Source of the DNA: Sphingobacteriia bacterium
GTDB taxonomy: Bacteria; Bacteroidota; Bacteroidia; B-17B0; Aurantibacillaceae
Direction: 5' to 3'
Length of the DNA stretch: 49,033 bases
Assembly: GCA_009927275.1 (NCBI GenBank)
Contig: RFNG01000142.1
Span: 1-49,033, forward strand
Shown here: one piece after another, positions 4,768 through 13,627 of the stretch
Numbering within the stretch: the first letter of the stretch is position 1
Layout: each line of letters begins with the position of its first letter
Notes under the pieces: generated by a model
Told to the model about the DNA's origin: nothing
Databases searched by the model: none
Seen by the model: only the letters and a program-made list of their open reading frames with translations
Translations under genes and position numbers: made by a program

Positions 4768-5391
4768 TCAATGTTTAAAGCGTTTTGGATGTTTTAACTG
4801 CACTGCTTTAACTTTAGGCGCAATAACAAACTGACAATACCCTTGTGTTGGATGGTTGTTAAAATAGTTTTGGTGATAGGGTTCCGCTTTATAAAATGTC
4901 ATTAATGGTAAAACTTGCGTACAAATAGGTTTAGAATACAATCCCGATGCCGACAAATTTAAAATAAAAGCCTTAGACGCCTGCGCTTGTAAGTCTGTAG
5001 TATAGAAAATAACCGAGCGGTATTGTGTTCCGATATCATTACCCTGCCGGTTTAATGTGGTTGGGTCATGTGCACTAAAAAATAATTCTAAAAGTGTTTC
5101 ACAAGTAATTATAGAAGCGTCATATTCAATTTTGCATACCTCGGCATGACCCGTATTGCCGCCACATACAGCTTCGTAGCTTGGATTTTTTAATGTGCCG
5201 CCACTGTATCCGCTGCTAACAGAAAGCACCCCCTCAACATTTTGAAATACAGCCTCTATACACCAAAAACAACCGCCGCCTAAAACAAGAATTTCAGTTT
5301 TGTTGTGAGTTGTATGAGATGCGGATGGCATGTTTTGTGAAAATAGGCTTAAGTTGCATAACAAGCAAAAAAATAAATAATGAATACTCAT
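4768..5391 (-). CDS. msrA: Exported peptide-methionine (S)-S-oxide reductase
   Basis: MsrA reduces methionine-S-sulfoxide in oxidised proteins. The 207-residue product has an N-terminal signal sequence (about residues 1-18, ending SLFSQ) and then GGGCFWCIEAVF with catalytic Cys41, followed by YSGG, GHAEV and PTTLNRQGNDIGTQYRS. A late Cys in QGYCQF could be a resolving cysteine. The signal sequence suggests a periplasmic or envelope repair enzyme. Its ATG overlaps the stop of the upstream lipoprotein gene by four bases (ATGA), so translation is coupled. Confidence 0.93.
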   Translation of the reverse strand: MSIHYLFFCLLCNLSLFSQNMPSASHTTHNKTEILVLGGGCFWCIEAVFQNVEGVLSVSSGYSGGTLKNPSYEAVCGGNTGHAEVCKIEYDASIITCETLLELFFSAHDPTTLNRQGNDIGTQYRSVIFYTTDLQAQASKAFILNLSASGLYSKPICTQVLPLMTFYKAEPYHQNYFNNHPTQGYCQFVIAPKVKAVQLKHPKRFKH

Positions 5392-5958: not shown

Positions 5959-7230
5959 ATGATTCCACTTGCAGAACGCATGCGTCCCAAAACACTAGAT
6001 GCATATATTGGTCAAAAGCATTTACTCGCTCCCGGAAAACCTTTACATGATTTATTAATACAGGGACATATTCCCTCCCTAATTTTTTGGGGGCCACCGG
6101 GTGTTGGTAAAACCACATTGGCCCACATAATGGCCCGCACCCTGAATCGTCCATTTTACGCCCTAAGTGCTGTACAGTCGGGTGTTAAAGAAGTGCGTGA
6201 AATAATTGAAGAGAGTCGTAAAAAAAATTTATTCAGTTCGGCCTCACCCATTTTATTTATAGATGAAATTCACAGATTTAGTAAATCACAACAGGATGCA
6301 TTACTTATGGCTGTTGAATTGGGCCAAATAACATTAATTGGGGCCACAACTGAAAATCCGTCGTTTGAAGTTATTTCGGCATTACTTTCCAGGTGTCAGG
6401 TATATGTATTACAACCTTTAACCGCAGCAGACCTTTTAGAGATATTACACCAATGTATTACCACAGATACCTATGTTATAAGCCGACACGTAGATTTAAA
6501 AGAAACCGATGCTTTACTTAAAGCTAGTGGTGGGGATGCCCGAAGATTATTAAATGCATTTGAATTGGCATTAAACAGCAGTACAAGTTCTAATGTTGAA
6601 ATTACCAACGCCTGTATTGAAACATTAATTCAAAATTTAACCACGCGTTACGATAAAACGGGCGAACAACATTACGATTTAAGTTCGGCTTTAATAAAAT
6701 CTATACGGGGCAGCGACCCTAATGCTGCTATTTACTATATGGCACGTATGCTTCATGGCGGGGAAGACCCCTTATTTATTGCACGCCGTCTTATTATATT
6801 GGCCAGTGAAGATATTGGCAACGCCAATCCCAATGCTTTGGTTTTGGCACAATCTTGCTTTAATGCCGTACATCAAATCGGCATGCCCGAAGCCCGAATA
6901 ATACTAAGCCAATGTGTTTTGTATTTAGCCTGTGCAGCAAAAAGTAATTCAGCATATCTGGCAATTGATGCCGCGCTTTCAGAATGCAATTCCAGTGGTG
7001 ATCTTCCAGTGCCATTAGAATTGCGTAATCCGGTAAGCGGTTTAATGAAGCAATTAGATTATGGCCAGAATTATGCCTATGCGCACAACCATCCAGATAA
7101 TTTTTACAACATGGAATTTTTACCCGAAGCAATTGCAGGAACTCGGTTTTATTCTCCAGGCGAAAACCCTAAAGAACAAGATTTTCAAAGCCGCCTTAAA
7201 AACCTATGGGGTAAAAAATATAATTACTGA
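5959..7230 (+). CDS. rarA: Replication-associated recombination protein A (MgsA/RarA ATPase)
   Basis: RarA is a clamp-loader-like AAA+ ATPase acting at stalled replication forks. The 423-residue product starts MIPLAERMRPKTLDAYIGQ and has Walker A GPPGVGKTT (45-53), Walker B LFIDEIHRF (about 99-107), sensor 1 GATTENP and the family's C-terminal tetramerisation region ending near NLWGKKYNY. The reading frame stays open back to 5800, but I chose ATG 5959 because the product then begins exactly as RarA usually does and the longer version would lie across the divergent lipoprotein gene. Its 3' end overlaps the convergent YHYH gene by 7 bases. Confidence 0.94.
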   Translation: MIPLAERMRPKTLDAYIGQKHLLAPGKPLHDLLIQGHIPSLIFWGPPGVGKTTLAHIMARTLNRPFYALSAVQSGVKEVREIIEESRKKNLFSSASPILFIDEIHRFSKSQQDALLMAVELGQITLIGATTENPSFEVISALLSRCQVYVLQPLTAADLLEILHQCITTDTYVISRHVDLKETDALLKASGGDARRLLNAFELALNSSTSSNVEITNACIETLIQNLTTRYDKTGEQHYDLSSALIKSIRGSDPNAAIYYMARMLHGGEDPLFIARRLIILASEDIGNANPNALVLAQSCFNAVHQIGMPEARIILSQCVLYLACAAKSNSAYLAIDAALSECNSSGDLPVPLELRNPVSGLMKQLDYGQNYAYAHNHPDNFYNMEFLPEAIAGTRFYSPGENPKEQDFQSRLKNLWGKKYNY

Positions 7231-8609
7231 CGGTTGATTATAATTTTAGAATTCCAAGATTGTTCAGCTGTATGTGCTATAAGCGTATAAACACCATTTT
7301 GCAATGTTTGCAGGTCAAGATAACACAGCGTTTGTCCAGGATAGATAAACGCCTGCCTTACAATGCGCTGCTGTAAATCAAAAAGTTGAACCCGTACCGT
7401 TTCGGTACTTAAGTTTAGCATTTGAACGGCTGCAAAGTCCTGTGTGGGATTTGGAAATACTGTAACCTGTAAGGCTTTAGAAAAGGCCTGTAATCCGGCA
7501 GGTGAGGGCGTATAACGGGTAACGGGCTCCGAAATAGATGCCACTTTTGATGCTGTAATAGTACCGTAAAAAGTTGGGCCCACCACATAAGGGTATGCCG
7601 AATTCCACTTATTATCAACTGTAGCAAAATAAGCATATGTTCCGTTAGGATATTCGGGTGTAACGCAAAATCTACCATTATGCACATCCATATAGGTTGC
7701 ATCATTGGGATGGGCTATAAATTCGTAATCTTCTCTAAAATAACCTATGGGGTAATTGGCACTAACGGCTGGACCAGAAGTAACCGTAGTACCGTTTGCC
7801 CACTGATTGCGTACCGAGATGCTACGTTTTTGATATCCGGATTGCATACGGCTTATACCCCCTGTTCCATTTGCATTTTTAAATCCATAGGCTCCGTAAA
7901 TTGGAAATCCATCGTAGGCAAAACCAATTAAGGGACTATGCTGCGTACTGTCAATTTTATATAGACCATCAGCATCGTAAAGATTACATATAGTTGATAG
8001 TACATTTAAATCTAAATCAAAAGCCGAAGGATTTTGATGATGATGGTAATTACCCATCGCCGGGTGCCCCTTGGCACAGTCAAAGCCGGCACGTTCGGCA
8101 AGTACAGCATCTCGGTTCCAGTCCATACTTACATTTGGCCCCCCTGGACAGGGAGGGTTTCCTGGACCGCCACACAGGGTATTCGTGCTGGGATTCCAAG
8201 CCACACCGTCGCGGTAATCAAACAATGCCACACCATTTATAAAAACACCAATATTACCACCGGTTGTAGATACCGGCGTGCCAGTATTGGAAATAGGATT
8301 TAAGGGAAATTTAAAAATGGCATTTTGACTGCTGGCCAGTGATGGATTTCCATCTAAAAATGGACCTGTAACATAGGCGGGAATGCCTTTGGTGCGAACA
8401 TAAACCCAGTTTGATGAATACAATACGGTTTGAACATTTACAGAATCATTATCTTGAATGGGTGTGGAATTACCCGACACGTAATGGCGGCCTTTAATGC
8501 CACTGGTGTTTTGAAGCCATGAAGAAATGGCAGGATTGTTTTGTGCGTATGCATACTGAAATAGTATTGCATATGAAAAAAAAGAAAGTACTAAACTATT
8601 ACGAATCAT
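7224..8609 (-). CDS. Secreted YHYH-domain protein with T9SS sorting domain
   Basis: The 461-residue product has a Sec signal peptide (ending AYAQ), a YHYH domain, and a C-terminal type A T9SS sorting domain in about the last 85 residues (FPNPTQDFAAVQM, LQNGVYTLIA). The YHYH part shows MGNYHHHQNP (about 186-195), GFAYDGFPIYGAYG and scattered His/Asp/Cys residues suggestive of metal binding. The domain's reaction is not established. ATG 8609 is preferred over the in-frame TTG inside the promoter motif. Its own -7 element lies 3 bases upstream. The next gene upstream encodes a diheme peroxidase, which suggests a link to metal or redox chemistry. Confidence 0.85.
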   Translation of the reverse strand: MIRNSLVLSFFSYAILFQYAYAQNNPAISSWLQNTSGIKGRHYVSGNSTPIQDNDSVNVQTVLYSSNWVYVRTKGIPAYVTGPFLDGNPSLASSQNAIFKFPLNPISNTGTPVSTTGGNIGVFINGVALFDYRDGVAWNPSTNTLCGGPGNPPCPGGPNVSMDWNRDAVLAERAGFDCAKGHPAMGNYHHHQNPSAFDLDLNVLSTICNLYDADGLYKIDSTQHSPLIGFAYDGFPIYGAYGFKNANGTGGISRMQSGYQKRSISVRNQWANGTTVTSGPAVSANYPIGYFREDYEFIAHPNDATYMDVHNGRFCVTPEYPNGTYAYFATVDNKWNSAYPYVVGPTFYGTITASKVASISEPVTRYTPSPAGLQAFSKALQVTVFPNPTQDFAAVQMLNLSTETVRVQLFDLQQRIVRQAFIYPGQTLCYLDLQTLQNGVYTLIAHTAEQSWNSKIIINRQ

Positions 8610-8681: not shown

Positions 8682-9704
8682 TTATTGGTTGCGGATTTCT
8701 TGCGGTACCTTATATGCTGGATTTTGCACAAACACTGAATCGTTAAGCGTAAACAAAAACGCTAAGAGCTGATTTTCATTTTCTAAAGTAAAGGGCTGGG
8801 CTGTATATACCTGTTTGCCGGGCCCGCGCCTGTAATGCTGTAGCACCTGCCTTAAACTGGAAAAACGACCATCATGCATGTATGGAAAACTATAACTCAA
8901 ATTACGTAAACTAGGTATTTTAAAAATAAAACTGTCTTTTGCATGCAATGTTATTTTAAATCGTCCGTAATCTGGCATAAGGGGTTGTAATGGAAGTTTA
9001 TTGTTGGAAAAATCACCTGTACTCATCAATGGTTCTGCATGACAAGAAGCGCAATGGGTTTTATAGATTGCATACCCTGCCGACTCGTCGGCATTAAACT
9101 GTGCTTTACCTGCCCTTACAAGGTCGTATTTACTTTGTGATGATATAATGTTTAAAACAAAAACTTCGAGGGCATGCAAAACATCAGATGGGCTGAGGCT
9201 ATAACCTGAGGTGCATTGTTGAATGGCTTTTTTATATACTGGAGCTTGATTAATATAGCTTACTGCCTGCTGAATGGGCAGGTCCATTTCATCCGGATGT
9301 TCAATAGGAATTTGTGCCTGAGCTTTTGCATTAATTGCACGTCCATCCCACATAAAAGCTTTATACCATGCTAAATTAAAAAGCGCCGGCGCATTGCGAA
9401 TACCAATGCGATCGTACACGCCATGGCTTAGCGGATGATCAACATGAGCAAATGCAGTAGCTGACTGATGACACGAAGCACAGGATACCGTTTGATTTTT
9501 TGAAATTCGCGTATCGTAAAACAACATGCGTCCCAATTTAAACCAATTGGAATCTATTTTATGTAACTTATGAAATGGCTTGGGCCATGATTTTGGAATT
9601 TGAGTATTGTCTTCGATTGGCCAAAATGCAAAAAATAAAAAAATCACTGTAATAAATGGAAAAAAAAGTAAAGCCGGCACGCGTCTATTGGTTGTGAAAT
9701 GCAT
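8682..9704 (-). CDS. Diheme cytochrome c peroxidase family protein, MbnH-like
   Basis: This 340-residue protein belongs to the CcpA/MauG superfamily of two-heme periplasmic enzymes. It has an N-terminal membrane anchor or signal (about 8-30) and two c-type heme sites, CASCH (75-79) and CASCH (218-222), with the family features GRMLFYDTRIS, FMWDGRA and PYMHDGRF. The gene overlaps the mbnP-like gene by 20 bases. In methanotrophs the corresponding MbnH oxidises a tryptophan of its partner MbnP to kynurenine, forming a copper site; I infer a similar protein-modifying role here. The alternative is a plain hydrogen peroxide-reducing CCP. Confidence 0.85.
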   Translation of the reverse strand: MHFTTNRRVPALLFFPFITVIFLFFAFWPIEDNTQIPKSWPKPFHKLHKIDSNWFKLGRMLFYDTRISKNQTVSCASCHQSATAFAHVDHPLSHGVYDRIGIRNAPALFNLAWYKAFMWDGRAINAKAQAQIPIEHPDEMDLPIQQAVSYINQAPVYKKAIQQCTSGYSLSPSDVLHALEVFVLNIISSQSKYDLVRAGKAQFNADESAGYAIYKTHCASCHAEPLMSTGDFSNNKLPLQPLMPDYGRFKITLHAKDSFIFKIPSLRNLSYSFPYMHDGRFSSLRQVLQHYRRGPGKQVYTAQPFTLENENQLLAFLFTLNDSVFVQNPAYKVPQEIRNQ

Positions 9705-10329
9705 AGGGAATGCGTTTGCTAAATTCTAAGGCTTCTATGCCGGGACTCATAATTTTAAATTGCTGCGATTTGAAACTTGGATTTACAATTTCAAACAGAT
9801 CTAAATTATAACGTTGCCTAAAACAGTTCCAATATTGAAAGCAATTGTAGGGAATTCGGTAACCGCCAATGTGAAATTGAAAATTTTGCCAATGTTGCTG
9901 TATTTTAATTTGGCCCTCCAATTTAAAATTTATATAACCGCTTTGCCAGGTCCAATACATGCCGTGAATGGGATCTAATACCCCACTTTGAATTCCTTTT
10001 GCATGCAAGCTACTATCTATACCGATACCAAAAGTTAAAGTGTCGGATTGTGCGTTGACGTTGGGAATTTTAATTTGAATATTGGCAACCGAATCAAATT
10101 TAAGAAGGTATACTGGTGTTTTAAAGTTTAATGGTTGTACACTGTTTGGTGTTTTTATACATTGTAAATACATATAACACTTTGTTATTACCACGCTGTC
10201 GTATTCGGTTTTTATGGCTTTTTGCATTTGTATGGCTGTGTTATGCCAAGTTAATTGCACATGCAGCTCTTGAGCAAAAATCGTTGACGCCAAGCACCAA
10301 ATGAGAATACAAATTTTAACCACATGCAT
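9685..10329 (-). CDS. MbnP-like copper-binding family protein
   Basis: The 214-residue product has a signal peptide (cleavage near IFAQ, residue 20) and the MbnP hallmark segment DPIHGMYWTWQSGYINFK (about 119-136), with Trp126 and Trp128 as candidates for oxidation. The N-terminal half resembles the beta-sandwich of the family (LHVQLTWHN and LLKFD). It starts 2 bases after the uvrA stop and overlaps the diheme peroxidase gene, the tight pairing expected for substrate and modifying enzyme. A copper role is established only for methanotroph homologues; the function here is inferred. No methanobactin precursor or synthesis genes are visible. Confidence 0.8.
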   Translation of the reverse strand: MHVVKICILIWCLASTIFAQELHVQLTWHNTAIQMQKAIKTEYDSVVITKCYMYLQCIKTPNSVQPLNFKTPVYLLKFDSVANIQIKIPNVNAQSDTLTFGIGIDSSLHAKGIQSGVLDPIHGMYWTWQSGYINFKLEGQIKIQQHWQNFQFHIGGYRIPYNCFQYWNCFRQRYNLDLFEIVNPSFKSQQFKIMSPGIEALEFSKRIPYAFHNQ

Positions 10330-10331
10330 CT

Positions 10332-13145
10332 TTATTGCAGCTTTAAATGAGACTTAAGATACAAGCCGGTATAAGAACGTTTATTTTGTGACAAAACTTG
10401 AGGCGGGCCTTCGCCAACAATTTTTCCGCCTCCGGCTCCTCCTTCAGGACCTAAATCTATAATCCAATCAGCGGCCGCAATGATGTCTAAATGGTGTTCA
10501 ATAATTATAACGGAATGCCCCTTTTGTAATAGTGCTTTAAAACTATGAATTAAACTCTGCACGTCTTTCAAATGCAAACCTGTTGAGGGCTCGTCAAAAA
10601 CAAATACCGTTGGTACTTGATGTTGTTGCATTACTAAAAAACTAGCAAGTTTTATGCGCTGAGCCTCTCCACCGCTGAGTGTACTGCTACTTTGCCCCAG
10701 CGGTACATATCCCATACCTACATCTTGCAGTGCTTTTAATTTTTCAAAAATACGTTTGTGCAAACGGGATGTACCTGTAGATTTAAAAAAATCTTGCGCT
10801 TCATTTACAGTTAAATTTAATAGCGCCGTAATATTTTTAGAATGGTATGTAACTTCCAGTGTTTCTGCTTTAAAGCGCGTTCCGTTACAAGACTCACAAC
10901 ACATATGAACATCGGCCATAAACTGCATATCAATAACAACCTCCCCCTCCCCTTGACAAGTTTCGCAACGGCCACCGGGTACGTTAAAGCTGAAATAGCC
11001 CGAACTGTACCCTCTGAGTTTTGACAAGGGTTCAGCTGCCATTAAATCACGTATATCGTCAAAAATTTTAAGATATGTAGCCGGATTACTTCGAGAGCTT
11101 CTGCCAATAGGGTTTTGATCAATATACTCTATAGCTTTAATACAATCCAAATCACCCTCCACAAGCGGACCGGAATCTGAATGTTTGTAATATCCCTCAA
11201 AATAACGCTGCAGCCGAGGCGCTATAGCCATATTAACCAAAGAGGATTTGCCTGATCCGCTTACCCCAGTTATGCAACACATAACCTGTAAAGGAACATT
11301 AACATCCAAAGCATTTAAATTGTGAGCCGTAACCTGTTTAAACCGAATCCAAAATTTTGGTTTAAGTGTTTTTGTATGCAGTGGTAAGCGAGGATTTGTT
11401 AGGAGTGCAGCAGTATAGCCCGGGGATGAAGGACCCAAAGCTTTGAGCGGTCCTTCAAAAACAACGGTACCACCTCCTGCTCCGGCTTCAGGCCCCATGT
11501 CAATTAAATAATCGGCTGCACGGATTATAGATTCATCATGTTCAACCACAACTAAGGTGTTTCCTTGTGCTTGTAATTTTCTTAAAACACCAATTAGTTT
11601 TTCTGTATCACGTGCATGTAATCCTATACTGGGTTCATCAAGTATATACAGTGATCCAACTAAAGCAGAGCCTAATTGTGTAGCTAAGTTAAGGCGTTGG
11701 CTTTCGCCACCACTTAAGGTTTGCGCTGCACGATTTAAACTTAAATAACCCAATCCCACATTTTTAATATACTCAAGGCGTGTTTTGATTTCGGTTAAAA
11801 TTATCTTTGAAATTTGTAATTGCTGCGCATCTAATTTTAAATTAAAACACCAAGTTAATACGTCGTCAATGGGCCACAATAAAATATCCGATAAACTTTT
11901 TTCACTGATTTTTACATCGTTGGTATCGGCCCTGAGGCGGGTTCCACGACATGCTGTACAAACCGTTTTACCACGATACCGGGCTAACATTACGCGGTAT
12001 TGAATTTTATATGATTCCTGCTCAAGCATTTTAAAAAAATCGTGCAAACCGGTAAAATGTGCATTACCTTCCCAAATTAATTGGTATTGACTTTTATTTA
12101 ACTGTGCAATAGGTTTATGAATTGGAAAATTAAACTTATGTGCGTTTTTAACTAATGCATTTTTATAGTACGACATAACCTCTCCGTTCCATGGTGCTAT
12201 GGCGTTTTCAAACACCGAAAGACTGGTGTTAGGAATAACAAGGTCGGGGTCAATACCCAATAAACTACCATAGCCCTCACAAGTTTTACAAGCTCCAATG
12301 GGGTTATTAAAACTAAAAAAATTAAGATCGGGTTTTTCTATGGGCGCACCATTGTGATAGGGTGTTAATGAAAACGATTTTAGGGTTTGTACATTATCAG
12401 TGCTTGTATACCACAATGTACAGGCATCATGCCCCTCAGAAAATGCTTGAGAAATACTGTCTAACACCCTCGAACTCCAGTCATCGTCACGTTTATCCAT
12501 TAAAATACGGTCTATAAGCAAATACCAAGATGCCGATGTGTATGATTGTAATTGTAGTTTTTGTAAATCGTAAACCTGACCTTCTGACCAAAATTTGGAA
12601 AATCCCATGTTTTGGTACCGTTTTATTTGGTCGGTCCAGTTTTTTTTGTTGAGTGCTTCCAGCGGTGCCAATATATAAACCATGTCAGCTTGCACGTCAT
12701 CGCATAGATACGTTAAAACACGTTCTGGCGTATAATGTATTACAGGCATACCCGTTTCCGGATGGTATTGAATTCCCGCACGGGCAAATAATAATTTAAA
12801 ATATTCGTAAAGCTCTGTAACGGTGCCTACTGTACTTCGGGGATTACGCGAAATGGTTTTTTGTTCAATAGCAATTGCAGGTGAAATTCCATGTAATGCT
12901 ACTAATTTAGGTTTTTGTAAGCGTCCTAAAAACTGTCGTGCATATGATGATAAACTTTCTACATAACGGCGTTGACCCTCTGCAAACAGTGTGTCAAATG
13001 CCAATGAGGATTTTCCCGAGCCTGATAAACCAGAAATAACGGTCCACTGGTTTCGCGGAATCTTTACATCAATATGCTTTAAATTGTGTTGATGAGCACC
13101 TTGTATATAAATCCAGCGTGCGGTGTCGAGTGATTTTAAGGGCAT
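10332..13145 (-). CDS. uvrA: Excinuclease ABC subunit A
   Basis: UvrA recognises DNA damage in nucleotide excision repair. The 937-residue product has both ABC ATPase cassettes: Walker A GLSGSGKSS (39-47) and GVSGSGKSS, with signatures LSGGESQRLNL and LSGGEAQRIKL, plus cysteine pairs of the zinc modules (CKTCEGYG, CTACRGTR, CETCQGEG, CCESCNGTR). Length is normal. It overlaps the thioredoxin-like gene by 10 bases upstream and is followed after 2 bases by the mbnP-like gene, an unusual operon for a repair gene. Bacteroidota often carry two UvrA paralogues; I cannot tell from here which one this is. Confidence 0.95.
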   Translation of the reverse strand: MPLKSLDTARWIYIQGAHQHNLKHIDVKIPRNQWTVISGLSGSGKSSLAFDTLFAEGQRRYVESLSSYARQFLGRLQKPKLVALHGISPAIAIEQKTISRNPRSTVGTVTELYEYFKLLFARAGIQYHPETGMPVIHYTPERVLTYLCDDVQADMVYILAPLEALNKKNWTDQIKRYQNMGFSKFWSEGQVYDLQKLQLQSYTSASWYLLIDRILMDKRDDDWSSRVLDSISQAFSEGHDACTLWYTSTDNVQTLKSFSLTPYHNGAPIEKPDLNFFSFNNPIGACKTCEGYGSLLGIDPDLVIPNTSLSVFENAIAPWNGEVMSYYKNALVKNAHKFNFPIHKPIAQLNKSQYQLIWEGNAHFTGLHDFFKMLEQESYKIQYRVMLARYRGKTVCTACRGTRLRADTNDVKISEKSLSDILLWPIDDVLTWCFNLKLDAQQLQISKIILTEIKTRLEYIKNVGLGYLSLNRAAQTLSGGESQRLNLATQLGSALVGSLYILDEPSIGLHARDTEKLIGVLRKLQAQGNTLVVVEHDESIIRAADYLIDMGPEAGAGGGTVVFEGPLKALGPSSPGYTAALLTNPRLPLHTKTLKPKFWIRFKQVTAHNLNALDVNVPLQVMCCITGVSGSGKSSLVNMAIAPRLQRYFEGYYKHSDSGPLVEGDLDCIKAIEYIDQNPIGRSSRSNPATYLKIFDDIRDLMAAEPLSKLRGYSSGYFSFNVPGGRCETCQGEGEVVIDMQFMADVHMCCESCNGTRFKAETLEVTYHSKNITALLNLTVNEAQDFFKSTGTSRLHKRIFEKLKALQDVGMGYVPLGQSSSTLSGGEAQRIKLASFLVMQQHQVPTVFVFDEPSTGLHLKDVQSLIHSFKALLQKGHSVIIIEHHLDIIAAADWIIDLGPEGGAGGGKIVGEGPPQVLSQNKRSYTGLYLKSHLKLQ

Positions 13146-13627
13146 TGCAAATTCAATAATGTGTAAAAATAATTACGGGTAGATGGATCGTTCCATAAAA
13201 TTTCACCCTCATGCTTTTTAATCCATTGGCCACCCGGTCCGATGATATAGGCACAGGGAATGGCATGGATTTTTAATTTAGAAAATGGTTCTATAGTTTT
13301 TCCGTATTGTAAACGCGGCGCCAGTTGCTTAAGCCGGTTTATTTTAGTCCAATTTTCGTCACTTAAAACTAAAACACTTGTAGAATCTAAGGTTGTGTAG
13401 CGGTTCATGTTTAATAACTCCTCGCGGCATGTTCCGCACCATGAGGCAGCAAAAACAAGCAAAAGCGGACGGTTTAGGTCTAATGCATGTACCTTGGTTG
13501 TAGTGCTTTTATAATAGTGTAACATGTGTGTTGAAAAATCGGGTGCTGCATAATATTGCTTTATATATAATCCCAAACCAAGCAAAAGTAAAAGCAATAA
13601 AACTCCAAAAAACAGACGCAGGCTCAT
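13136..13627 (-). CDS. Thioredoxin-like membrane-anchored protein
   Basis: The 163-residue product has a long leucine-rich membrane segment (about 4-22) followed by a thioredoxin fold with active site ASWCGTC (Cys64, Cys67) and a cis-proline region AIPCAYIIGPGG. It probably faces the periplasm. WCGTC differs from WCGPC of classical thioredoxins, and a redox role in cytochrome or copper-protein maturation is plausible given the diheme peroxidase and MbnP-like genes two and three genes downstream. It is the first gene of the operon; TACATTTG lies 4 bases before its ATG. Confidence 0.82.
   Translation of the reverse strand: MSLRLFFGVLLLLLLLGLGLYIKQYYAAPDFSTHMLHYYKSTTTKVHALDLNRPLLLVFAASWCGTCREELLNMNRYTTLDSTSVLVLSDENWTKINRLKQLAPRLQYGKTIEPFSKLKIHAIPCAYIIGPGGQWIKKHEGEILWNDPSTRNYFYTLLNLQCP

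What the first reader, a model, noticed from the sequence alone, without database searches (positions are those of the whole stretch)
8682..10329. MbnP/MbnH-like pair in a non-methanotroph context
An MbnP-like protein with the GMYWTWQSGYINF segment and a two-heme peroxidase with two CASCH sites overlap by 20 bases. In methanotrophs the pair makes a copper site by oxidising tryptophan to kynurenine. Here it lies behind a thioredoxin-like gene and uvrA, with no methanobactin genes. This points to a wider protein-modification system for extracytoplasmic copper, its purpose in this phylum unknown.
Basis: partly seen in the sequence, partly recalled or inferred. Interest (0 to 1): 0.7.

Follow-up and report, generated by a model that had tools for sequence, protein, structure and literature searches.

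The report
Kynurenine-copper pair with exported partner
Two neighbouring genes in this Bacteroidota genome look like a known enzyme-and-target pair that turns a tryptophan into a copper-binding residue, and in many relatives they travel with a third gene for an exported protein and often with a likely metal-sensing switch, which gives a testable lead to what the pair does outside methane-eating bacteria.

Summary
Window 9685-10329(-) is a PF20243 MbnP and 8682-9704(-) a two-heme MauG/MbnH-type enzyme, overlapping by 20 bases. M124, W126, W128 and H153 are invariant in 42 MbnP relatives; the predicted fold matches Methylosinus MbnP 7l6g at Z 14.2, next 4.1. Kynurenine and copper remain inferred. 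The pair outside methanotrophs is already in print. MbnP and MbnH lie within 4 kb of 47 of 61 YHYH loci in one family-level group and of 63 of 80 named contigs, but of only 6 of 15 loci elsewhere in the phylum. A sensor-like gene, mostly with an ECF sigma factor, is in 57 of 116 triad loci. It stands by 23 of 44 MbnP genes beside YHYH and 1 of 106 without (its profile was built from triad loci). The window lacks it; its triad starts 2 bases behind uvrA. Verdict: a divergent member of a known pair, inside a conserved, probably metal-responsive operon that I did not find described in an open-licence library lacking the two key papers.

The parts
9685..10329 (-). mbnP: 214 aa, signal peptide-like N-terminus without lipobox (by eye), PF20243
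   Evidence: ORF; Pfam 92.8 bits (cut-off 27); AF2 model pLDDT 88.5, 7l6g Z 14.2
9946..9960 (-). codons of M124-Y-W126-T-W128 (MxWxW; W126 = predicted kynurenine, M124 = predicted Cu ligand)
   Evidence: invariant M, W, W in 42 of 42; aligned with GMAWNWQAG of 7l6g through L264
9871..9873 (-). codon of H153 (predicted Cu ligand, HIGG)
   Evidence: invariant in 42 of 42; aligned with VHVG of 7l6g through L264
8682..9704 (-). mbnH: 340 aa two-heme MauG/MbnH-type enzyme, overlaps mbnP by 20 bases
   Evidence: PF03150 150.6 bits; best PDB match of the family profile is Methylosinus MbnH 6e1c
9468..9482 (-). first heme site CASCH (residues 75-79)
   Evidence: sequence; invariant CxxCH in A3
9039..9053 (-). 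second heme site CASCH (residues 218-222)
   Evidence: sequence; invariant CxxCH in A3
8832..8834 (-). codon of Y291, predicted Tyr ligand of the second heme (as in MauG/MbnH; Met in bCcP)
   Evidence: invariant in 35 of 35; Tyr in 6e1c, Met in 1iqc; but Tyr also in 18 of 20 other paralogues
7224..8609 (-). YHYH protein (PF14240) with T9SS C-terminal sorting domain; ATG at 8609 (mechanical TTG start 8615)
   Evidence: PF14240 182 bits, PF18962 36 bits; TIGR04183 29.5 bits (cut-off 23); AF2 pLDDT 83.6
8037..8051 (-). NYHHH motif of the YHYH core
   Evidence: Y190, H191, H193 invariant in 42 of 42 (numbering from the TTG)
7236..7460 (-). T9SS sorting domain of the YHYH protein
   Evidence: fold match to T9SS C-terminal domains
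10332..13145 (-). uvrA, 2 bases upstream of mbnP; local neighbour, not conserved
   Evidence: in L001-L286 the only other matches are L003 and L006, pieces of the same contig
13136..13627 (-). thioredoxin-like ORF (CGTC), overlaps uvrA; local neighbour
   Evidence: weak thioredoxin-fold matches under cut-offs; no match outside the window in L001-L286
42225..48613 (-). T9SS genes gldN, gldM, gldL, gldK and a PorP/SprF family gene: the exporter the YHYH tail implies
   Evidence: all five over NCBIfam cut-offs

Best explanation
The two genes are a divergent Bacteroidota MbnP/MbnH pair. After export to the periplasm, the two-heme MbnH is oxidised (by H2O2 or O2) and removes electrons from the MbnP bound to it, oxidising the first Trp of the WxW motif (W126) to kynurenine. 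That completes a Cu(I) site with M124 and H153. The MbnP is soluble or N-terminally anchored, not a lipoprotein. The pair works together with the third gene, a YHYH protein carried to the cell surface by the type IX system, probably a metalloprotein that MbnP serves. In relatives the set is switched on by an ECF sigma factor held by a membrane protein and a periplasmic metal sensor; here that module is gone and the triad is probably read through from uvrA. Shown: genes, motifs, fold match, gene association, neighbouring modules. Inferred: heme loading, kynurenine, copper, the link of MbnP to YHYH in function, the sensor's metal, the read-through.
For: Family and fold: Pfam MbnP and CCP_MauG; MbnP model to 7l6g Z 14.2 over 191 residues, next Z 4.1. 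M, W, W and H of MxWxW and HxGG invariant in 42 MbnP; 177 of 179 unique MbnP ORFs have a WxW, 172 MxWxW followed by G[YR], 158 the strict pattern with H[ILVF]GG. Both heme sites, Q129, E139 and Y291 invariant in 35 MbnH; the family profile hits Methylosinus MbnH 6e1c first of 30 PDB sequences. Association: P and H beside YHYH in 47 of 61 and 63 of 80 loci (the two sets overlap); two gene orders, PHY 90 and YPH 21 of 111 unique triads; P-H distances correlate, r 0.77, P-Y 0.39, H-Y 0.51, none of 500 permutations as high. In a FastTree of 70 enzymes the 35 triad MbnH (window included) form one clade and the 15 from pairs without YHYH another. Lipobox: 8 of 112 MbnP beside Y and H, 39 of 56 beside H alone. 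Regulation in relatives: sigma-70 regions 2 and 4 in 36 of 36 picked, Metal_resist or LTXXQ matches at E up to 0.1 in 16 and 8 of 29 sensors, H63 and C122 invariant, 23 of 44 against 1 of 106. YHYH was predicted on other grounds to bind a metal (PMC7824862 passage). T9SS genes in the same window.
Against: No chemistry was tested. Both proteins fall under the NCBIfam cut-offs, as do the other Bacteroidota members tested. Single-sequence search ranks classical peroxidases above 6e1c for the window MbnH, and TIGR04039 is also the best NCBIfam match of the C100 peroxidase that has no MbnP. Tyr291 is not diagnostic: 18 of 20 other CCP_MauG paralogues have it. The window MbnH sits on a long branch (1.22 against a median tip of 0.32) and its MbnP is far from all others, which could mean relaxed selection in a 2.29-Mb genome. 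Pairing is not strict: 11 of 179 MbnP have no MbnH in the DNA held, and of 20 loci without YHYH 14 show one. YHYH stands without P and H in 9 of 61 and 6 of 80 loci and in 8 of 15 outside the order. The metal predicted for YHYH in print is zinc, with a hydrolase role. 13 of 42 sensor matches lie near neither YHYH nor a listed MbnP, and the sensor profile was made from 29 proteins picked at triads, which favours triads. Ten further proteins scanned, from the window and from the C97 and C57 loci, hold no copper family by name.
Confidence: 0.7

Rival explanations
1. The two-heme enzyme is an ordinary bacterial cytochrome c peroxidase that detoxifies H2O2, and the MbnP-like protein is its unmodified periplasmic partner or electron donor.
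For: phmmer of the single window MbnH ranks bCcP structures first; an msrA-like gene lies nearby (4768-5391).
Against: Tyr replaces the Met ligand of bCcP, though paralogues share this; profile search puts MbnH 6e1c first; pairing with an MbnP that keeps its site residues in 168 of 179 cases; the pair-linked enzymes form their own clades.
Confidence: 0.12
2. YHYH is a secreted zinc-dependent hydrolase (for example on peptidoglycan or matrix) and the operon is an envelope-stress unit; the MbnP/MbnH pair is a neighbour in the same stress response and does not act on YHYH.
For: PMC7824862 (passage) predicts a Zn site of three His and an Asp and a metal-dependent hydrolase role for YHYH domains of phage tails; LTXXQ/Metal_resist sensors include envelope-stress proteins such as Spy and CpxP (recalled; matches); YHYH occurs with the module but without P and H in a few loci.
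Against: P and H are the usual neighbours of YHYH in the window's group, in two gene orders; MbnP without YHYH rarely has the module (1 of 106).
Confidence: 0.25
3. MbnH mainly modifies the YHYH protein before T9SS export, with MbnP as a docking or copper-delivery partner.
For: Tight linkage of all three; T9SS cargo passes the periplasm where MbnH works (established knowledge); invariant Tyr and His cluster Y190, H191, H193, H226.
Against: YHYH occurs with the sensor module but without P and H in several loci (saXY 3, aXY 1); MbnP keeps its own W126 site.
Confidence: 0.08
4. The triad serves a metal other than copper (for example Zn, Ni or Co, as in Cnr/Zra systems).
For: Sensor matches Metal_resist/LTXXQ, families that hold CnrX and ZraP (family members recalled).
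Against: The similar CorA site holds Cu(I) (PMC3912023 passages; Methylosinus MbnP recalled); MbnPH-like genes sit in copper operons (PMC9426467 passage); invariant Cys and His in the sensor would suit Cu(I) (inference).
Confidence: 0.15
5. In this genome the pair is decaying: the regulatory module is lost, the sequences are fast-evolving, and the second pair on C97 carries the function.
For: No match to the sensor profile in the whole genome; long branch; small genome; C97 pair present.
Against: All three ORFs are open and the invariant site residues are kept.
Confidence: 0.15

Closest known systems
MbnP/MbnH of Methylosinus trichosporium OB3b (PDB 7l6g, 6e1c; TIGR04052/TIGR04039)
   Same: Gene pair, MbnP fold, MxWxW and HxG motifs, two-heme enzyme with Tyr at the second heme
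   Different: About 16% identity in the fold alignment; under NCBIfam cut-offs; no MbnB in the genome; joined to a T9SS YHYH protein
CorA/CorB and MopE/SACCP of methanotrophs
   Same: Two-heme enzyme plus a partner with Trp oxidised to kynurenine near a Cu(I) site (PMC3912023 passages)
   Different: [quoted passage not shown] two-His site there against Met plus His here (inferred)
MbnPH-like genes in DUF2946 (cruR) copper operons
   Same: Pair in a non-methanotroph copper setting (PMC9426467 passage)
   Different: YHYH here, and an ECF module in relatives; no copper family by name among the other proteins scanned; TonB receptors and DUF2946 not searched for
YHYH domains of phage tails
   Same: Same domain by name; metal site predicted (PMC7824862 passage)
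   Different: There fused to tail or lectin domains and taken for metal-dependent hydrolases; here a T9SS cargo beside MbnP/MbnH
CnrYXH-type ECF metal sensing (Cupriavidus; recalled)
   Same: ECF sigma, small membrane protein and Metal_resist-like periplasmic protein in one operon in relatives
   Different: Absent from the window; the small membrane protein has no usable Pfam match; metal unknown
MauG of methylamine utilisation
   Same: Two-heme enzyme that oxidises Trp of a partner protein; Tyr heme ligand (recalled)
   Different: Different substrate and product; TIGR03791 137 bits against a cut-off of 444

Membership tests
MbnP (PF20243) | Pfam gathering score | tested here: met
   92.8 against 27 bits
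MbnP (TIGR04052) | NCBIfam equivalog cut-off | tested here: not met
   29 against 140 bits; six other Bacteroidota MbnP also under it
MbnP | WxW with first Trp plus Met and His of the copper site | tested here: met
   M124, W126, W128, H153 invariant in 42; aligned to 7l6g by way of L264, E 0.21 alone. That these are the ligands is recalled
MbnP | MbnP fold | tested here: met
   7l6g Z 14.2, 191 residues, 3.4 A, next Z 4.1
MbnP | kynurenine at the first Trp; Cu(I) bound | not testable with these tools
   needs mass spectrometry and metal analysis
MbnH (TIGR04039) | NCBIfam cut-off | tested here: not met
   158.9 against 362.85 bits; three other Bacteroidota MbnH 198-219 bits
MbnH/MauG superfamily | two CxxCH, Tyr at second heme, conserved Glu (role recalled) | tested here: met
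   not diagnostic within this phylum
MbnH | gene partner of mbnP | tested here: met
   overlapping genes; 168 of 179 MbnP with MbnH within 3.5 kb
YHYH (PF14240) | Pfam gathering score | tested here: met
   182.2 against 25 bits
YHYH (PF14240) | three conserved His and an Asp as metal site (PMC7824862) | tested here: inconclusive
   H184, H191, H193, H226 and several Asp invariant in 42; the passage does not say which residues are meant, and the model's coordinates were not at hand
T9SS type A cargo | C-terminal sorting domain and T9SS in the genome | tested here: met
   TIGR04183 29.5 against 23; GldKLMN
Methanobactin operon | MbnB | tested here: not met
   PF05114 0 in own genome, 2 of 14 controls rang
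Cnr-like ECF metal sensing | sigma, membrane protein and sensor in the operon | tested here: not met
   none directly upstream in the window; no sensor match in the genome; sensor present in 57 of 116 triad loci of relatives

The most novel reading that the evidence does not exclude
Bacteroidota hold a six-gene, metal-sensing operon (ECF sigma, membrane anti-sigma-like protein, His/Cys periplasmic sensor, MbnP, MbnH, YHYH) in which an enzyme-made kynurenine copper site in MbnP loads or serves a YHYH metalloprotein that the type IX system then puts on the cell surface. YHYH would then be a copper-served protein and not, or not only, the zinc hydrolase proposed for phage tails, and kynurenine-copper chemistry would be tied to type IX secretion. 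The operon in this window is a version that has lost its own switch.
Probability: 0.3. Interest if true: 0.7.

Novelty: new variant of a known kind. Interest (0 to 1): 0.5.

Why it matters
Why bacteria without methane oxidation keep kynurenine-forming pairs is open. The association with a YHYH protein and with an ECF metal-sensor-like module turns it into a concrete question: which metal induces the operon, and does MbnP hand copper to a surface protein? It also ties two poorly known families (PF14240 and the Bacteroidota MbnP) to each other, so a test of one informs the other.

Tried and rejected
Tried and set aside. (a) A conserved uvrA or thioredoxin link: in L001-L286 only pieces of the same contig matched; loci L001-L067 have short flanks. 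(b) MbnP profile against PDB sequences: no match at E up to 10; reached only through fold comparison and the intermediate L264. (c) Fold of the YHYH core: only the T9SS domain matched; the core was not folded alone, so nothing is claimed about it. (d) Tyr291 as an MbnH marker: rejected, 18 of 20 other paralogues have it. (e) A column labelled Q129 is in fact residue 131; the Q129 statement rests only. (f) Whether the two kinds of MbnH are each other's closest kin: not resolved (label 0.25 at that node; labels may shift on re-rooting). (g) Neighbours of 20 loci without YHYH: among 54 proteins scanned, DUF4198 in 5, CarboxypepD_reg in 4, Phenol_MetA_deg in 4, not followed. (h) The membrane protein of the ECF module has no usable Pfam match in 21 scanned, so anti-sigma is inferred from place and size.

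Literature searches. YHYH: 26 papers hold the word, 20 listed; passages of two read. YHYH with copper: 2 papers, neither on bacteria by title. PF14240: 1 paper. MbnP with ECF sigma and others: 2 papers. TIGR04052/TIGR04039/PF20243/metallo-mystery: 1 paper. CnrX/ECF/copper/Bacteroidetes: 12 listed, none on this operon by title. MbnP/MbnPH: 167 papers, 20 listed, many on unrelated topics by title; PMC8788703, PMC10167746, PMC12997803 and PMC12607021, listed, were not opened. That the triad is not described rests on these searches of an open-licence library only; the two key papers (PNAS 2021 on MbnP, JBC 2019 on MbnH) are not held and may mention YHYH.

Rows dropped before counts. Of 76 YHYH rows, regions were fetched for 62 rows (60 regions) plus the window; five partial and eight weak rows were left out. 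YHYH hits under 120 bits in my core profile were dropped, which removed L284-L286 of the 18 phylum loci; those 18 were picked by me from the hits of 43 genomes. The 80 named loci are the best of 581 and lean to the window's YHYH type. MbnP rows are the 150 listed; the list was cut. Proteins for the sensor, membrane and sigma alignments were picked by size and place. The lipobox comparison uses a simple pattern, and 60 of 66 MbnP counted as without YHYH come from short loci where YHYH could lie outside.

Pairing is no longer called strict.
Full report
What is there. The window is contig C72 of a 2.29-Mb, 165-contig genome, 99.3% complete. It is Bacteroidota-like by its T9SS genes and by its named relatives. 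On the minus strand the order is: thioredoxin-like ORF (13627-13136), uvrA (13145-10332), mbnP (10329-9685), mbnH (9704-8682), YHYH gene (8609-7224). mbnP starts 2 bases after uvrA ends, and mbnP and mbnH share 20 bases.

MbnP. PF20243 matches at 92.8 bits and TIGR04052, the WxW family, at 29 bits, far under its cut-off of 140. Six other Bacteroidota members tested also stay under it. Among 42 relatives, M124, W126, W128, G131, Y132, H153, G155 and G156 are invariant. Of 179 unique MbnP ORFs of at least 180 aa, 177 contain a WxW and 172 an MxWxW followed by G[YR]; 158 fit MxWxW plus H[ILVF]GG. An AlphaFold2 model (pLDDT 88.5) matches the crystal structure of Methylosinus trichosporium MbnP, 7l6g, at Z 14.2 over 191 residues; the next entry has Z 4.1. 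An intermediate Bacteroidota MbnP (L264) aligns weakly (E 0.21) with 7l6g so that GMMWSW lies on GMAWNW and MVHTG on MVHVG; the window aligns with L264 in the same register. That the first Trp of WxW becomes kynurenine and that Met and His hold Cu(I) is my recollection of the 2021 MbnP paper, which is not held here. For the similar CorA site I read passages of PMC3912023: two His, water, and kynurenine at 2.9 A.

MbnH. CCP_MauG matches at 150.6 bits and TIGR04039 (MbnH family) at 158.9 of 362.85 bits. In 35 relatives both CxxCH sites, Q129, E139 and Y291 are invariant. The family profile finds Methylosinus MbnH 6e1c first among 30 PDB sequences. Its Tyr lies under Y291, while the peroxidase 1iqc has Met there. 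The single window sequence, however, ranks peroxidases first. A FastTree was made of 35 triad enzymes (the window and 34 drawn at random from 110), 15 from pairs without YHYH and 20 other CCP_MauG proteins of the same group of genomes. The triad enzymes form one clade with the window inside (support 0.999) and the 15 another (0.992); whether these two are closest kin is not resolved (0.25). Of the 20 others, 18 also have Tyr. So Tyr supports a MauG-like rather than bCcP-like heme but does not mark MbnH here. The window's branch is long, 1.22 against a median tip of 0.32.

The third gene. The downstream ORF is a YHYH protein (182 bits) with a T9SS sorting domain; the window itself codes for GldK, GldL, GldM, GldN and a PorP/SprF protein. 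In 87 genomes of the order (one family, ten genera), MbnP is in 80, YHYH in 60 and CCP_MauG in 83. Within 4 kb and on the same strand, MbnP and MbnH flank YHYH in 47 of 61 loci; 2 have MbnH only, 3 are at contig ends and 9 have neither. In the 80 best named contigs the figures are 63, 6, 5 and 6. A rough chance estimate gives about 0.2 same-strand neighbours among 68 YHYH rows; 46 were seen. Of 111 unique triads, 90 have the order P-H-Y and 21 Y-P-H. P, H and Y distances correlate (0.77, 0.39, 0.51; none of 500 permutations as high), which relatedness alone also produces. Outside the order the link weakens: among 392 genomes of the phylum YHYH is in 43 and MbnP in 101, and of 15 scored loci that I fetched there, 6 have P and H, one has H at a contig end and 8 have neither. 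In print, YHYH domains of phage tails are predicted to hold a zinc site of three His and an Asp and to be metal-dependent hydrolases (PMC7824862, passage).

The switch in relatives. Upstream of many triads stand, close together or overlapping, an ECF sigma factor (36 of 36 picked have sigma-70 regions 2 and 4), a protein of about 95 aa with one hydrophobic stretch and no Pfam match in common (21 scanned), and a protein of about 155 aa that matches Metal_resist (16 of 29) or LTXXQ (8 of 29) at E up to 0.1, with H63 and C122 invariant. The sensor is present in 57 of 116 loci with P and H, 53 of them with the sigma gene before it, and in 4 of 40 without the full pair. It stands near 23 of 44 listed MbnP that have YHYH and 1 of 106 that do not. 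Three cautions: the sensor profile was made from proteins picked at triads, the genomes are related, and 13 of its 42 matches in the 87 genomes lie near neither YHYH nor a listed MbnP. A few loci keep the module with YHYH but without P and H. The window has no such module upstream and its genome gives no sensor match (an empty answer is weak evidence).

Two kinds of pair. The own genome also has a pair on C97 with lipoprotein-like N-termini and no YHYH, and a lone MbnP on C57. Ten further proteins scanned, from the window and from the C97 and C57 loci, hold no copper family by name. In the loci held, 8 of 112 MbnP beside both Y and H have a lipobox by my pattern, against 39 of 56 beside H alone (most MbnP counted as without YHYH lie in short loci). 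Pairing is common but not strict: 168 of 179 MbnP have an MbnH within 3.5 kb, and of 20 loci without YHYH fetched later 14 show one.

How it most likely works. MbnH, loaded with two hemes in the periplasm, uses peroxide or oxygen to oxidise W126 of MbnP to kynurenine, completing a Cu(I) site. MbnP then stores or passes copper, and the exported YHYH protein, with its invariant His, Asp and Glu residues, is a likely receiver or partner; a zinc hydrolase that merely shares the operon is the main rival. In relatives the operon probably answers to a periplasmic metal signal. Here it seems to be read with uvrA. All chemistry is inference.

What is known. PMC3621798, section 12 read in full: the pair is conserved far beyond methanobactin producers. 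PMC9426467 (passage): MbnPH-like genes in operons with copper proteins in other bacteria. PMC9601215 (passages): role of mbnPH in methanobactin clusters still described as unknown. So the pair outside methanotrophs is not new. I found no paper on the triad or its switch, within an open-licence library that lacks the two key papers.

Noticed in passing
G000 contig C97 6039-7846 (L267): Second MbnP/MbnH pair in the same genome, with lipobox-like N-termini, WSW motif, His in place of Trp119 in its MbnH, and no YHYH gene.
   Followed up: partly
G000 contig C57 1581-2393 (L268): A lone MbnP (WDW) with no MbnH match in the 12 kb fetched, followed by an AhpC-TSA/redoxin-like ORF; it may be served by one of the other two MbnH.
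   Followed up: partly
L007 1319-2271 (contig C100): Another CCP_MauG gene broken into two frames; assembly error or a decaying gene.
   Followed up: no
window 9685-10329: The window MbnP has four Cys after its signal-like stretch (51, 57, 163, 169) whose numbers pair to a constant sum of 220, as two cross-strand disulfides or a small metal site would; most relatives shown lack the first two.
   Followed up: no
L068-L207, upstream of triads, e.g. L069 8788-10163: ECF sigma, small membrane protein and sensor with invariant His63 and Cys122, a metal-sensing-like set of Bacteroidota that I did not find described.
   Followed up: partly
L287-L306: MbnP loci without YHYH often lie beside proteins of about 125 aa (DUF4198 or CarboxypepD_reg-like in some) and a protein of about 335 aa (Phenol_MetA_deg in some); six of the 20 show no MbnH match.
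   Followed up: partly
L077, L106, L119: Sigma/sensor module directly with YHYH but without MbnP and MbnH.
   Followed up: partly
L104, L111, L112, L154: Loci with the order Y-P-H or with two YHYH genes around or behind one pair.
   Followed up: partly
window 4768-5391: MsrA-like gene with a signal-like N-terminus on the same strand, downstream.
   Followed up: no
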